NCBI RefSeq assembly: GCF_029626025.1
Contig: NZ_JARUBF010000001.1
Coordinates: 5,922,001-5,986,000 of the forward strand
Length of the DNA: 64,000 bases
Origin: Solwaraspora sp. WMMD406
Lineage (GTDB): Bacteria > Actinomycetota > Actinomycetes > Mycobacteriales > Micromonosporaceae
Reading direction: 5' to 3'
Numbering within the stretch: position 1 is the stretch's first letter; the number at the start of each line of letters is the position of its first letter. Made by a program: the position numbers and the translations under genes. Below the pieces are notes generated by a model, which was not told the DNA's origin, did not search any database, and saw only the letters and a list, made by a program, of their open reading frames with translations. Positions 23,013 to 30,010 of the stretch are shown piece by piece.

Positions 23013-23116
23013 GCCTGACCTGGTGGCTCAGCCTGACCTGGTGGCTCAGCCTGATCCGGCGCTAGCCTGGTCCGGTGCTCAGCCTGATTGGTGGCTCAGC
23101 CTGATCCGGTGGCTCG
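23013..23116. repeat. Degenerate 18-bp tandem repeat
   Basis: GCCTGACCTGGTGGCTCA occurs twice perfectly (23013-23030, 23031-23048) and continues as altered units to 23116, one of them enlarged to 33 bp. The array fills the space between the kinase stop and the convergent ABC ATPase gene and supplies the last codons of the latter (GRATGSG). Confidence 0.85.
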
Positions 23117-24439
23117 ACCGAGTCGGATCCGGTCACCGGACCGGTCGAACAACAACAGCCGGTCGAGATCCACCGCGAGCGTCATCGTGTCGCCCGGTCG
23201 GGGTCGGCCGGGCGCGGGCACCCGGACCACCACGTCGCCGTCGGTGACCGCGCTCACGCCGTCGGCCTCGGGTTCGTACACCGGGTAGAAGCCGTACTCG
23301 GTGCGGGCCGTGGCCGGCGGACCGGCCCGGCGGTGCTGCGGGACGATCCGGGCGATCGCCTGCCGCAGATGATGACCGGTCGGCGGATCCTCGGCCAGCA
23401 GCTCGGCCAGACGCACATCGGGATCGGGCAGGTCGAGACGTGTCTCCGCCCCGGACGTCGGCACACTGCCGGTGTCCACCCGGGCCAGCGACTCGTGGCC
23501 GAGGTTCTCCACGGAACGGACCGTGCCGCGCAACGTGGTCTGCGGCGGTACGGCGGACGTGACGACCGACAAGGCGTCGGCGCGCAGCGCCACCGTGACC
23601 CGCTCGGTGTGATGATCGGCCAGCCCGGCGAGCCGGGCGTCGTCCACCGGCAAGTCGAGCACCTGCGCGCCCAGGTCGACGACCAGCCGCTCCGGCTCGG
23701 CGTACACCGCGCCCTGCAACAGGCTGGTCCTCGGGTTGCCAAGGAAGGCCGCCACGAACACGTTCGCCGGATCACCGTAGACCTCCGCCGGCGGGCCGAT
23801 CTGCTGCAGCCGGCCCCGACGCAGTACGGCGAGCCGGTCGGCCATGGTCAACGCCTCGGTCTGGTCGTGGGTGACGTACACGGTGGTGACGCCGAGCCGA
23901 CGGGCCAGCGCGGTGACGTCGGCCCGCAGTTCCGCCCGCAGACCGGAATCCAAGTTGGACAACGGTTCGTCGAGCAGGAAGGCCTTCGGCTCCCGGACGA
24001 TCGCCCGGGCCATCGCGACCCGCTGCCGCTGCCCCCCGGACAGCGCCGCCGGCAGGCGGTGCAGGTGCTCGACGATGCCGAGCTCGGTGGCGACCTGACG
24101 AATCCGTCGATTCACCGCCGGCCCGTGCCCCATCCGCAACGGGAACGCGATGTTCTGCGCCACGGTCAAATGCGGATACAGGGCGTAGTCCTGGAAGACC
24201 ATCGCGACGCGGCGCTGCTGCGCGGACCGGCCGTCGACCACCTGCCCGTCGATACGCACATGCCCGGAGGTGGGCTCTTCGAGACCGGCCACCAGCCGGA
24301 GGATGGTCGACTTGCCGCACCCCGTCGGCCCCAGCAGGACCAGCAACTGGCCGGACTGGACCGTGATGTCGACCCGGTCCACGGCCACAGTGCCGTCATC
24401 GAAGACCTTGGTCAGCTCCTCGGTGGCGATAGCGACCAT
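23096..24439 (-). CDS. ABC importer ATPase, UgpC/MsmK (CUT1) type
   Basis: 447 residues. The nucleotide-binding domain is complete: LLGPTGCGKSTILRLVAG (Walker A), VFQDYALYPHLTVAQNIAFPL (Q-loop), LSGGQRQRVAMARAIVR (signature), AFLLDEPLSNLDSGLR (Walker B), YVTHDQTEALTMADRL (H-loop). The C-terminal 200 residues form the regulatory MOP/TOBE-like domain typical of sugar ATPases, enlarged by a polar insert around 330-390. No permease or binding protein is adjacent, so it may serve several importers as MsiK does. The start has GGGAGGTG upstream. The last seven residues come from a tandem repeat. Confidence 0.88.
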   Translation of the reverse strand: MVAIATEELTKVFDDGTVAVDRVDITVQSGQLLVLLGPTGCGKSTILRLVAGLEEPTSGHVRIDGQVVDGRSAQQRRVAMVFQDYALYPHLTVAQNIAFPLRMGHGPAVNRRIRQVATELGIVEHLHRLPAALSGGQRQRVAMARAIVREPKAFLLDEPLSNLDSGLRAELRADVTALARRLGVTTVYVTHDQTEALTMADRLAVLRRGRLQQIGPPAEVYGDPANVFVAAFLGNPRTSLLQGAVYAEPERLVVDLGAQVLDLPVDDARLAGLADHHTERVTVALRADALSVVTSAVPPQTTLRGTVRSVENLGHESLARVDTGSVPTSGAETRLDLPDPDVRLAELLAEDPPTGHHLRQAIARIVPQHRRAGPPATARTEYGFYPVYEPEADGVSAVTDGDVVVRVPAPGRPRPGDTMTLAVDLDRLLLFDRSGDRIRLGRATGSG

Positions 24440-24527
24440 GCGATCACCTCCCGCCCCTATCGTCAGGGGCGAACAGGCATCGGCGCCAGTCCCTGTCGGC
24501 AGAAGGTGGACGACGGCCGTCGAGCGG

Positions 24528-28800: not shown

Positions 28801-29399
28801 ACCGCGAGTACGCCGAGCACGATCGCCGCCGCCCGGGTGAACAGCAGCCGCCCGCCGCCCCGGTAGAGCGCGCCGACCAGCGGGTCGACGTTGGCCAGTA
28901 CGGTACGGCGGCCCTGCGCGGCGGCCAGCAGTGTCCGGCCGGCCCGGACCGGCCAGGGCCGGCGGTGCACCCGGTCCAGCGGCCGGAAGGCGTCCACCGG
29001 CAGCTCGGCGAGCATCCGGTTGCCGGCCAGGTCGGCGACGACCCGGGTCACCTGGTCCGGGGCGAGTCGGCCGGCGATCCGGGCGAACTCGGCGACCAGC
29101 CGGGCCACCGTACGGGTGCCGTCCATCAGCTGGGCGAGCCGCCACTCATCCGGCGTCAGCCGCAGGTAGCGGGCACCGCCCCGGTCGTCCGGGGACTTGA
29201 GCATGACGTACGGCACGTCGCGGACCGAGACAAGTTCGACGTACTCGATGCCGGAGCGCAGCACCGGGCGGGCCCGGGCAGGGTTGAGCCGTTCGACCAC
29301 GGCCGCCCACAGTCCGGGGTCGGCCGGTGCGACCGGTTGCCCCGGCGCCCGTCCGGCCAGGGCCTCCCACACGCTCATCCGGGTCTCGACGACCGTCAC
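25893..29399 (-). CDS. M50 site-2 protease with PqqD-like, cNMP-like and FecR-like domains
   Basis: 1168 residues. Order: a PqqD-like N-terminus (about 62-110, VPYVMLKSPDD ... LRLTPDEWRLAQLMDGTRTVARLVAEF); membrane helices with the intramembrane zinc site HELGH (242-246) and the second motif LNPFLALDGYYLL (Asp340); a cyclic-nucleotide-binding-like barrel (475-580) and a degenerate second one; a further membrane helix (748-768); a FecR-like beta domain (780-910); a Pro/Ser/Thr stalk with 33-bp DNA repeats; and a C-terminal beta domain with two Cys. It resembles putative peptide zinc metalloproteases of the YydH kind. GTG 29399 was chosen because GGAGGAG lies six bases upstream; the frame is open to 29450. 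Confidence 0.8.
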   Translation of the reverse strand: MTVVETRMSVWEALAGRAPGQPVAPADPGLWAAVVERLNPARARPVLRSGIEYVELVSVRDVPYVMLKSPDDRGGARYLRLTPDEWRLAQLMDGTRTVARLVAEFARIAGRLAPDQVTRVVADLAGNRMLAELPVDAFRPLDRVHRRPWPVRAGRTLLAAAQGRRTVLANVDPLVGALYRGGGRLLFTRAAAIVLGVLAVFGFGLFCWTWWRGDQSVFLTGGSYVAGAAVLLGLNVLALACHELGHALATKHAGRRVPAAGFLIYFGIPSVFVDTTDVWMADRRSRLVTTASGPAAGLVLAGIAGIVGFLFPAAAPWTFKLAFAWYLNALFNLNPFLALDGYYLLMDWLEIPNLRARGLAFVTGRLRRRGPRWAELDREGRLVALYGMLAILWLVIAVNLFWRIWTDRVAGLVTGLWRSGWPARMLLVAVVAGLAAPLVYLAVGWLARRYRRLRVRWAERRHASDTPRRLDALRSSALRVLPPEALGRLASRARWVHPRTGEQLVAAGAAQPAVFVVVDGAVEGRALGDLAGTVRERLGPGGLVGLASVLTGRPAALSWHTAGTTLLALPPSVVAGVIGPLPGPPPAERTAAEALFAETPALSGLTGEDRLGLVSRARPVGLPPGAPVRLLGPHDAVVVESGVIALADGTELRRGTMIGPVGAEPPEAVAVTRTPVRLWQLPAVAGLPMLLGAAPAQVAEASAAAIQGAAPASGVHPAGDYPPLAAPPGPPPRGGDDQVDGRFERRLWWLVLLLLLFALLITGTNLLPGPAWAEMPADRALLRVERGTVRVVTGGEPVTLRDGAAMYVGAGHRVEVADRSTGELIFRGGAATVLCAGVRAEVGALWSTGTRPVAPNAELTLDRGRVLADTASTSAAFRPLAFTVTSRGEEMANRGEAWFAVNSGQVRVAIGEVRRNGVTQQATGERLGCGDGAVIDPPGGTASEPPAAGTPTPEAPTVQSPSPDLSATSQPVPTPGLSPSPPPVPGPTTAPPAPDPSPSTSPSPSPSPSPRPSTTTAPPTTPPPPTTAPPTTPPPPTTAPPTTPPPPLVISWVNEPSGEIGQDAGGAPCGGPNSTTAGAAVRVAGDPPGVNVVLSWSGFAQGGTSMNPDGPVYYGAVGPVDYSGEPNSGGSLAITVIATDRQGRTSSPIETKISVAPCRATAAGAEIR

Positions 29400-29524
29400 T
29401 GCCTGCTCCTCCGCGACTGTTCGCGGCTGCAGGTTAGACCGGAACGCCACTCGTACGCGACTGCGGGACCGCTATCGGACAGCATGTCCCGTGGAAATAG
29501 TCTCGTCGATCGACTACGCCGGGG

Positions 29525-30010
29525 TCAGTCACTCATCCTTTCGGTCAGCGTACGCGCCCGGAACACCTGCACCCGCCTGGCCGTACGCACCACATAGGAT
29601 CGCAACAGGGTAGGCATCCGGAGACGGACGGTGACGGTCACCCGGGAACCCGTGGCCGCCGGACTGGTAGCCGCCGGACCGGTGTGGTGCGGTGCCACCG
29701 TCATCACGAAGCGGACCGAGACCCACGCGGGACTGCGTACCTCCAGCACCAGTTCCCGGCCCGGCACGGTGGCGGTCTGCCGGACCCGCAGCACGTTGTC
29801 GTACCGCAGCGGACCGGCGATGGTGAACCGTTCGACCGCGACGTAGCGCAGCACCGCCCGGCCGGCGTCGTCGGTCTCCGCCACGACGTCGCGGACCGCG
29901 ACGATCAACGGCGACAGGCCGATGTGGTTGGTCGGCTCGGCCAGGTGCGCGTACACCCGTTCGGGCGGCGCCGCGACGGTGAACTCGTCGGTGAAGGTCT
30001 CCGTCCGCAC
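29525..30010 (-). CDS. SRPBCC (START-like) family protein
   Basis: 161 residues beginning TFTDEFTVAAPPERVYAHLAEPTNHIGLSPLIV, the standard first strand, helix and loop of the polyketide cyclase/START fold. Alternating strands and a C-terminal amphipathic helix (LLRSYVVRTARRVQVFRART) follow. It probably binds a lipid-like ligand in the cytosol. GTG start at 30010. It is the first gene of the minus-strand run that continues into the M50 protease; the IS607 element sits immediately upstream and may have cut it off from its original promoter. Confidence 0.7.
   Translation of the reverse strand: MRTETFTDEFTVAAPPERVYAHLAEPTNHIGLSPLIVAVRDVVAETDDAGRAVLRYVAVERFTIAGPLRYDNVLRVRQTATVPGRELVLEVRSPAWVSVRFVMTVAPHHTGPAATSPAATGSRVTVTVRLRMPTLLRSYVVRTARRVQVFRARTLTERMSD

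What the first reader, a model, noticed from the sequence alone, without database searches (positions are those of the whole stretch)
23096..30010. Possible new peptide-processing system: PqqD-like M50 protease beside a leader-domain calcium-repeat protein
On one strand lie an SRPBCC gene, an M50 protease whose N-terminus resembles the PqqD leader-binding domain, a 71-residue zinc-finger protein 18 bases after it, and a protein that starts with a RiPP-leader-like helical segment but continues into five DxDxDGxxD calcium loops. The last protein has no Sec signal, yet calcium loops and Pro-rich repeats suit an extracellular life. The protease could bind the leader through its PqqD-like part and release the repeat domain across the membrane. 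Established: M50 proteases cleave within membranes, and PqqD-like domains bind leaders. Inference: that these two proteins are enzyme and substrate.
Basis: partly seen in the sequence, partly recalled or inferred. Interest (0 to 1): 0.78.

Follow-up and report, generated by a model that had tools for sequence, protein, structure and literature searches.

The report
Leader-guided protease for calcium-loop proteins
Soil actinobacteria carry a membrane protease with an antibiotic-peptide-style "leader reader" domain whose gene travels with genes for large calcium-loop proteins that wear such a leader, which suggests that leader-guided cutting is used on ordinary folded proteins and not only on small peptide natural products.

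Summary
The 24528-25580 product starts with an Os1348/NHLP-type leader (NF038399, 40.3 bits, cut-off 40) and carries five D-x-D-x-D-G-like loops. The M50 protease has an RRE/PqqD-like domain before the catalytic domain (model; top PDB match PqqD 5sxy, E 1.6e-3). In 61 related genomes all 19 with this leader have the protease; none of the 38 without the protease has the leader. In 394 class genomes the four strongest of seven leader hits lie within 2.4 kb of the four best protease hits. A second architecture (FHA-RRE-M50, Ser/Thr kinase, leader protein) occurs elsewhere. 17 of 37 proteases without a neighbouring leader lost a zinc ligand, 0 of 42 with one, but that is about three independent losses in one clade. 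The Cys/His protein is a firm partner; the SRPBCC gene is not. Binding, cleavage, cut site, calcium binding and export are untested. The kind is known (RRE-M50 proteases of daptides); a large folded cargo without recognised tailoring enzymes is new as far as searched.

The parts
24528..25580 (-). leader/calcium-loop protein, 350 aa: leader 1-47, conserved block 56-75, disordered linker, five-loop domain 226-305, Pro-rich tail
   Evidence: NF038399 40.3 bits, residues 3-47; alignment A4 of 15 orthologues; AlphaFold model
25440..25580 (-). Os1348/NHLP-type helical leader, residues 1-47
   Evidence: model pLDDT 93-95 for residues 1-40; 6lk7 and SonA among the top Foldseek hits
25392..25415 (-). 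conserved post-leader block VETRANQS, residues 56-63, consensus [VL]-x-x-R-x-[STN]-[KQ]-[SAGM]; candidate RRE-pairing strand and/or cleavage region
   Evidence: starts at residue 55-58 in 62 of 62 distinct leader proteins scoring 28 bits or more (five weaker hits were dropped; pattern written after seeing the alignment, and the block lies inside the A1 profile)
24666..24905 (-). five-loop D-x-[DT]-x-D-G-x-x-[DE] domain, residues 226-305
25660..25875 (-). 71-aa Cys/His-rich (zinc-finger-like) partner protein
   Evidence: in 34 of 34 named loci with a leader and in 63 of 78 named protease loci; Cys3, 6, 14, 17, 22, 55, 58 and His25 invariant in 16 aligned members
25893..29450 (-). RRE-M50 intramembrane metalloprotease with cNMP-like domain, a further membrane segment near residue 760-788 and a Pro-rich/beta C-terminal region, 1185 aa (or 1168 aa from 29399)
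   Evidence: NF041824 daptide_HExxH 128.1 bits (cut-off 300), LiaK/YydH E 1.1e-10; hydrophobic segments
28998..29252 (-). RRE/PqqD-like domain, protease residues 67-151
   Evidence: AlphaFold: residues 21-100 of the 130-residue model at pLDDT 90-97; Foldseek top hit PqqD 5sxy
28662..28676 (-). HELGH zinc site, residues 259-263; partner motif NPFLALDG at 28377-28400
23096..24439 (-). MalK-like ABC ATPase, syntenic neighbour in many but not all leader-bearing loci; not found beside the leader-less Actinoplanes proteases
   Evidence: role unknown, loosely attached
21431..23005 (+). Ser/Thr protein kinase, convergent syntenic neighbour; a kinase follows the protease in the second architecture
   Evidence: Pfam Pkinase 2.4e-40; loosely attached

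Best explanation
An RRE-guided site-2-type protease matures a leader-tagged protein that is not a small peptide natural product. The RRE-like domain of the protease grips the Os1348/NHLP-type leader of the loop protein (inferred from fold and from published NHLP-RRE contacts in another pathway), the HELGH/NP-LDG membrane site cuts after the leader, probably in or just past the conserved VExRxSK-type block (inferred), and the glycine/proline-rich, calcium-loop part is released, possibly on the outer side of the membrane (speculative). The 71-aa Cys/His protein is a regular helper of the protease (inferred from linkage). Shown here: leader homology, RRE-like fold, conserved linkage in two architectures, and decay of the zinc site in part of a clade that lacks the leader protein. 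Not shown: binding, cutting, cut site, calcium binding, export.
For: Leader. RRE. Linkage:+36 (7 of 7 genomes of the genus incl. own);+84 (19 of 19 leader genomes have the protease; 0 of 38 protease-less genomes have the leader; Fisher 3e-12, kinship not corrected; with the broader NF038399 model 20/8/3/30, Fisher 6e-7);+25 (394 genomes; 4 of 7 leader genomes have a full-length RRE-M50 within 2.4 kb; Fisher 2.4e-6); (leader in 34 of 78 named protease loci, each time with the Cys/His gene). Second architecture FHA-RRE-M50 + kinase + leader protein in 7 loci, 3 of them in another family. Different cargo behind the same leader and block: Nitriliruptoraceae MAG with three leader proteins upstream of the protease, two of them directly before it; Actinomycetota MAG with five leader proteins on one contig, four with 9-18 loop-pattern matches, protease on another contig. 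Zinc-site decay: 0 of 42 versus 17 of 37; in Actinoplanes subtropicus and sp. KI2 the copy with a leader neighbour is HELGH and the second copy without is HELAR. RRE-M50 with an Os1348-type precursor also occurs beside MNIO and ATP-grasp genes (L093, near-identical L094). NHLP leaders have been shown to engage an RRE (PMC12455567, passages read).
Against: 29 of 38 genomes searched keep the protease with no detected leader. In the 28 leader-less proteases with a Cys/His neighbour the RRE is more alike within the group (82%) than the protease part (72%), the reverse of the leader-bearing group (78% and 82%), so the RRE has some further use or partner. 12 of 29 proteases of the leader-less clade, and G036 outside it, still have HExxH. 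Zinc-site losses are only about 3 independent events in a clade with 28% of the tree length (p about 0.02, chosen after seeing the data), and the tree tool's independent-pairs test is not significant. In L040, L044, L045 and L046 the leader protein lies away from the protease. Eight relatives have an NF038399 match but no protease, one of them (G017) with a stronger NF038399 score than the window's protein. The window's RRE does not reach Pfam's PqqD threshold and no Foldseek hit reaches E 0.001. The loop protein has no hydrophobic helix for a classical intramembrane cut.
Confidence: 0.7

Rival explanations
1. Regulated sensor: the RRE holds the loop protein at the membrane and the protease, under control of its cNMP-like and outer domains and of a kinase, cuts it to send the loop part into the cytoplasm as a signal; no export.
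For: cNMP-like domain and C-terminal beta/Pro-rich region on the protease; Ser/Thr kinase next to the protease in the second architecture and FHA domain on that protease (FHA tested on L091 only); kinase and ABC genes are not found beside the leader-less Actinoplanes proteases; the Cys/His protein also partners another intramembrane protease, PrsW, in distant relatives.
Against: Calcium-type loops suit the outside better (general knowledge); the cNMP match is sub-threshold; kinase linkage in the window type is only synteny and the kinase is not found in several leader-bearing loci, for example L165 and L166.
Confidence: 0.2
2. Ordinary RiPP: the loop protein is a modified precursor and the tailoring enzymes are encoded elsewhere.
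For: The leader family is a RiPP precursor family; relatives L093/L094 and the archaeal L218 hold RRE-M50 beside MNIO/ATP-grasp or radical-SAM-like genes and short precursors.
Against: No tailoring enzyme recognised beside the cassette in the loci listed, though few neighbours were profile-scanned; cargo is mostly 200-700 aa with a confidently folded loop domain.
Confidence: 0.05
3. Hitch-hiking: protease and loop protein are merely neighbours kept by synteny, with no biochemical link.
For: Within the family the wider neighbourhood (HtrA, ABC, kinase, patatin) is often conserved too.
Against: The pair recurs in other genomic settings and architectures, and protease and leader genomes coincide class-wide.
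Confidence: 0.05

Closest known systems
Daptide RRE-peptidase MpaP/DapP (NF041824)
   Same: RRE fused to an M50 intramembrane protease that removes a leader (PMC10036551, passages read); model matches residues 90-447, E 4.6e-37
   Different: Score 128 against a cut-off of 300; no daptide maturation gene was recognised among the neighbours (not scanned exhaustively); partner is a 350-aa loop protein; extra cNMP-like and outer regions; Cys/His partner
Epipeptide protease EpeP/YydH/LiaK (NF058609)
   Same: M50 protease thought to cut and export its peptide (review PMC10885120, passages read); match residues 248-369, E 1.1e-10
   Different: Below cut-off (41.6 against 225 bits); short peptide substrate
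Os1348 family of NHLP-clan precursors (NF038399; PDB 6lk7)
   Same: Leader homology just above cut-off and a similar helical fold
   Different: Os1348 is an 85-aa precursor with neighbouring predicted modification genes (PMC7726476, abstract); here the leader heads a large loop protein
NHLP leader bound by the RRE of YcaO enzyme MprC (PMC12455567)
   Same: Structured NHLP leader plus a late leucine motif engages an RRE (mutants and AlphaFold 3 model; passages read)
   Different: YcaO cyclodehydratase and azoline peptides, not a protease

Membership tests
Os1348/NHLP leader family (NF038399) | Score above NCBI's curated cut-off | tested here: met
   40.3 bits against 40 as protein; 44.2 bits in the genome search; two type B relatives score below (26.3 and 21.9 bits)
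Os1348/NHLP leader family (NF038399) | Helical leader fold | tested here: met
   Model pLDDT 93-95 for residues 1-40; 6lk7 rank 4 (prob 0.91, E 0.14) after three TarM chains, SonA ranks 5, 8, 9
Pfam Frankia_peptide PF14407 | Gathering score 48 | tested here: not met
   23.1 bits
PqqD (PF05402) | Gathering score 23.4 | tested here: not met
   No match at E 0.001 in the window's genome; type B homologue L091 21.9 bits
RRE domain | Three strands then three helices, PqqD-like | tested here: met
   (a further helix precedes); rank 1 5sxy PqqD E 1.6e-3, rank 3 5v1u TbiB1 with leader, rank 5 TglHI; ranks 2 and 4 are other proteins; none reaches E 0.001
RRE domain | Binds the leader | not testable with these tools
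   needs a binding assay or a complex model
Site-2 (M50) protease | HExxH and NP...LDG in membrane segments | tested here: met
   HELGH 259-263, NPFLALDG 351-358, hydrophobic segments; Pfam Peptidase_M50 only 18.1 bits against 27.2
Daptide protease (NF041824) | Equivalog cut-off 300 bits | tested here: not met
   128.1 bits
Daptide gene cluster | Oxidative decarboxylase, aminotransferase, methyltransferase and short precursor | tested here: inconclusive
   none recognised in the neighbourhood listings, but only five proteins of the locus were profile-scanned
RiPP biosynthetic cluster | Tailoring enzyme beside the precursor | tested here: not met
   The five scanned genes of the window locus are loop protein, Cys/His protein, protease, SRPBCC and ABC ATPase; genes elsewhere in the genome were not examined
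Calcium-loop (TSP3-like) proteins | Dx[DN]xDG loops | tested here: met
   Five loops, two imperfect; Pfam TSP_3 does not match the window protein, only L051 weakly, E 0.0062
Calcium-loop (TSP3-like) proteins | Binds calcium | not testable with these tools
   needs ITC or a structure

The most novel reading that the evidence does not exclude
RiPP-type leaders serve in actinobacteria as a modular sorting and maturation tag for large folded calcium-loop proteins: an RRE-guided site-2 protease with a Cys/His helper cuts the leader and hands the cargo to the outside, a protein export or surface-display route independent of Sec and Tat signals, with the cargo swapped freely behind a constant leader and block.
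Probability: 0.3. Interest if true: 0.88.

Novelty: new variant of a known kind. Interest (0 to 1): 0.72.

Why it matters
RRE-leader recognition is known as the logic of small peptide natural products. Here the same logic appears tied, over many genera of Micromonosporaceae and in more distant actinobacteria, to a proteolytic step on large proteins. It gives a concrete candidate substrate for a large family of RRE-M50 proteases, a natural series of inactivated proteases to compare with, and a simple co-expression test. It also warns genome miners that RRE plus NHLP leader does not always mean a modified peptide.

Tried and rejected
Pfam PqqD on the window's genome gave nothing; the RRE had to be argued from fold. 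The PDB sequence search with the RRE profile was led by designed beta-trefoils matching one short strand, judged spurious; PaaA (E 0.0096) and PqqC/D 5sxy (E 0.57) came after them. The PDB sequence search with the leader gave the expected clan at weak E-values, and also unrelated chains (ATP synthase delta, JIP3, chitinase) in the same list. Foldseek of the loop protein gave no convincing relative for the loop domain. FecR was not found by Pfam. SRPBCC as part of the set was rejected (only L032-L037, the genus). The reading 'the RRE exists only for this leader' was weakened by its conservation in leader-less genomes. With NF038399, 28 of 61 relatives have a match and 8 of these have no protease; with profile A1 those 8 drop out, but I chose the rows of A1 and left out, for example, the different leader of G017 (L048), and A2 was built from proteases standing next to leaders, so the two profiles are not blind to each other. 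The class and family searches score only a capped number of candidates per genome (14 for A1 and 4 for A2; 94 and 27; 150; 15), so misses are possible. The block count used hits of 28 bits or more; five weaker hits (L097, L098, three in L099) were dropped. The zinc-site table used proteases over 380 bits with near-full model coverage; this dropped all type B proteases but L050, the MNIO-type L093/L094, L095, L096, L138 and partial ones. Rfam and promoter scans gave nothing on the cassette. Paper searches: (0 papers; 0; daptide, 12; 25, 15 listed; 1, an OMV study, not read; 70, 15 listed; 0; 17, 10 listed; 1, unrelated by title), 94 (3, unrelated by title); I found no description of this pairing in them, but the library lacks most subscription papers. 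Seen of papers: passages of PMC10036551, PMC12636437, PMC7470986, PMC10885120, PMC6959600, PMC12455567; abstract and outline of PMC7726476 and PMC13252029; in PMC2887384 none of six search terms occurred.
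Full report
What is in the window. The stretch 23096-30010 (minus strand) holds, in transcription order, an SRPBCC-like gene, a 1185-aa M50 protease, a 71-aa Cys/His-rich protein 17 bases on, a 350-aa protein 79 bases further, and a MalK-like ABC ATPase.

The leader. Residues 3-47 of the 350-aa protein match NF038399, Os1348 family NHLP clan, at E 2.4e-10 and 40.3 bits, just over the curated 40; Pfam's Frankia_peptide matches below threshold. 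The first PDB sequence relatives of the leader profile are, weakly (E 0.03 to 0.3), nitrile hydratase alpha chains including the 85-aa 6lk7, gallate dioxygenase and an NHLP leader, 8tb1; unrelated chains follow at E 0.7 and above. AlphaFold gives a confident helical leader, a mostly very-low-confidence linker (residues 50-209) and a confident loop domain (about 221-320). Foldseek lists 6lk7, named there as Os1348 from Pseudomonas sp. Os17, fourth after three TarM chains, and borosin precursor SonA fifth, at weak E-values (0.14 and 0.81).

The RRE. Residues 67-151 of the protease precede the membrane domain. The model of a 130-residue piece (30-row alignment A3) has a first helix, then three strands followed by three helices, mean pLDDT 80, 90-97 in the core. 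Foldseek's first hit is the PqqD domain 5sxy (E 1.6e-3, probability 1.00), the third the RRE TbiB1 solved with its leader (E 0.013), the fifth TglHI; rank 2 is GdmN and rank 4 a methyltransferase, and none reaches E 0.001. NCBIfam ranks the protease nearest to the daptide intramembrane protease (128 bits, cut-off 300), whose paper describes an RRE-dependent intramembrane peptidase (PMC10036551, passages).

Linkage. In the genus (own genome plus six) protease, Cys/His gene and leader gene stand together in 7 of 7. Among 61 genomes (own, genus, family, order) the protease profile A2 finds 23 and the leader profile A1 finds 19; all 19 are among the 23 (Fisher 3e-12; kinship not corrected). Protease without A1 leader: G011 (69% complete), G035, G036, G052. 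With the independent model NF038399 the table is 20 both, 8 leader only, 3 protease only, 30 neither (Fisher 6e-7). In 394 class genomes the leader profile finds 7; the four strongest, own included, lie within 2.4 kb of a full-length protease hit; the other three (G294, G425, G328; E 1e-5 to 4e-5) do not (Fisher with all 7: 2.4e-6). Of the 8 genomes there whose protease match covers the RRE, 4 have the A1 leader, G340 has an Os1348-type precursor in the same cluster (63.4 bits) and G199 a near-identical one, and G086 and G118 show only the Cys/His gene. Of 78 named loci found with the protease, 34 hold a leader gene within the fetched stretch and 63 a Cys/His gene; all 34 have both. Some named loci repeat unnamed ones. 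The class and relatives searches score a capped number of candidates per genome, so absences are not proof.

Two architectures and exchangeable cargo. In G015, G022, G023, G033 and, in another family, G158, G373, G441 (7 loci), the leader protein lies beside a shorter RRE-M50 protease without a separate Cys/His gene. The protease begins with a zinc-ribbon-like stretch and an FHA domain (FHA tested on L091 only, E 2.3e-14) and is followed by a Ser/Thr kinase (Pfam on L091; the others by BLAST or by eye) and, in at least L049 and L090-L092, a further related protein. Bodies behind the leader differ: Pro-rich with a few loops and a Gly-rich hydrophobic tail (L050, L051), Gly-rich (L092), without loop patterns (three leader proteins in a Nitriliruptoraceae MAG, L208, two of them directly before the protease), or long TSP3-like loop arrays (four of five leader proteins on one contig of an Actinomycetota MAG, L231, whose protease and Cys/His gene, L200, lie on another contig). 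What stays is the leader and a block [VL]-x-x-R-x-[STN]-[KQ]-[SAGM] that starts at residue 55-58 in 62 of 62 distinct proteins of 28 bits or more (five weaker hits dropped). The pattern was written after looking and lies inside the search profile, so the count describes and does not test. In an NHLP-RRE pair studied by others a leucine motif late in the leader was modelled to extend the RRE sheet, with supporting mutants (PMC12455567, passages); the block could be that strand, the cut site, or both.

A natural experiment. A clade of 29 proteases from Actinoplanes and Paractinoplanes keeps the protease and, in 26 of 29, the Cys/His gene, in most cases with HtrA before and patatin after, but without leader protein, ABC or kinase match in the fetched stretch (ABC or kinase are also missing in some leader-bearing loci, for example L165 and L166). 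A whole-genome search of 38 genomes finds a leader in 9 and none in 29. Of 79 distinct proteases with near-full coverage (88 before removing duplicates), all 42 with a leader in the fetched locus have HExxH; 17 of 37 without have lost a zinc ligand (HELAR, REYAR, REWAR, YELGH, QEFGH, YHLAR). All 17 are in the clade; the other 12 of its 29 keep HExxH but have SP for NP and LDG[HKQ] for LDGY. Actinoplanes subtropicus and sp. KI2 carry both kinds: leader copy HELGH, leader-less copy HELAR. Caution: on the tree this is about 3 independent losses, in a clade with 28% of the tree length (p about 0.02, chosen afterwards), and the tree tool's independent-pairs test is not significant. Leader-less proteases outside the clade (for example L180, L206, L134) stay intact; the genomes of these three carry a leader elsewhere, but G036 (L136) keeps HExxH without a detected A1 leader. 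Against a pure leader-reading role, in the 28 leader-less proteases with a Cys/His neighbour the RRE is more alike (82%) than the protease part (72%), while in the 41 leader-bearing ones compared it is 78% and 82%.

The Cys/His protein. Seven cysteines and one histidine are invariant in 16 aligned members. In the class sample 14 of 394 genomes have it; 5 of these have an RRE-covering A2 protease and 9 have no A2 match. In the seven of these nine that I fetched it stands next to a PrsW-like membrane protein (Pfam-confirmed in the two tested, E 2.2e-23 and 5.8e-23; by eye in the rest) and in five next to a small winged-helix-like protein (by eye). It looks like a helper of intramembrane proteases in general (inference).

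Mechanism. Most likely the RRE reads the leader and the M50 site cuts behind it. EpeP is thought to cut and export its peptide (review PMC10885120, passages), which makes release outside conceivable, but the loop protein has no strongly hydrophobic segment, and a cytoplasmic release is not excluded. Calcium binding is inferred from loops only.

Verdict. The kind (RRE-guided M50 leader protease) is known; the large folded cargo without recognised tailoring enzymes, the added domains and the Cys/His helper make it a new variant.

Noticed in passing
window 30058-32015 (-): TnpB-like gene (OrfB_IS605) overlapping a gene that I read as a serine resolvase (not profile-tested), with an Rfam Transposase-2 RNA at 30085-30151, between the SRPBCC gene and HtrA; in L032 and L034-L037 of the genus these two are direct neighbours. 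Looks like an IS607-type element (label recalled).
   Followed up: partly
L093:389-7596 and L094:6080-13251: Putative MNIO RiPP cluster: MbnB/TglH-type enzyme, MvdC/D-like ATP-grasp, 97-aa Os1348-type precursor with a Cys-containing tail, RRE-M50 with cNMP and AhpC/TSA domains, Cys/His protein (profile scans on L093 only).
   Followed up: partly
L218:7674-10903: Candidatus Methanoxibalbensis ujae (archaeon, MAG): RRE-M50-like protease, radical-SAM-like protein and a 73-aa NHLP-like precursor in a row (last two labels by eye).
   Followed up: no
L232-L238: The Cys/His protein family sits beside PrsW-family-like intramembrane proteases in seven of seven loci fetched from other actinobacteria (Pfam on two).
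   Followed up: partly
L175-L215 (Actinoplanes/Paractinoplanes): A clade of 29 RRE-M50 proteins, 17 of them pseudoproteases with lost zinc ligands and all with altered NP/LDGY motifs, but a conserved RRE.
   Followed up: yes
L096:4750-4917 and L138:11009-11167: Small ORFs starting MTDKKI(T/K)PA next to the RRE-M50/Cys-His pair, possibly another short precursor or partner.
   Followed up: no
L100:12711-13608: Four short tandem ORFs with related motifs (such as ELE.LDAP) near an M50 protease, look like daptide-type precursors (resemblance recalled, not tested).
   Followed up: no
L200 and L231: Both lie in one MAG (G471); the last residues encoded at the end of L200 and the first of L231 look alike, as if the two contigs were neighbours, but an exact shared end of 40 bases or more was not found.
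   Followed up: partly
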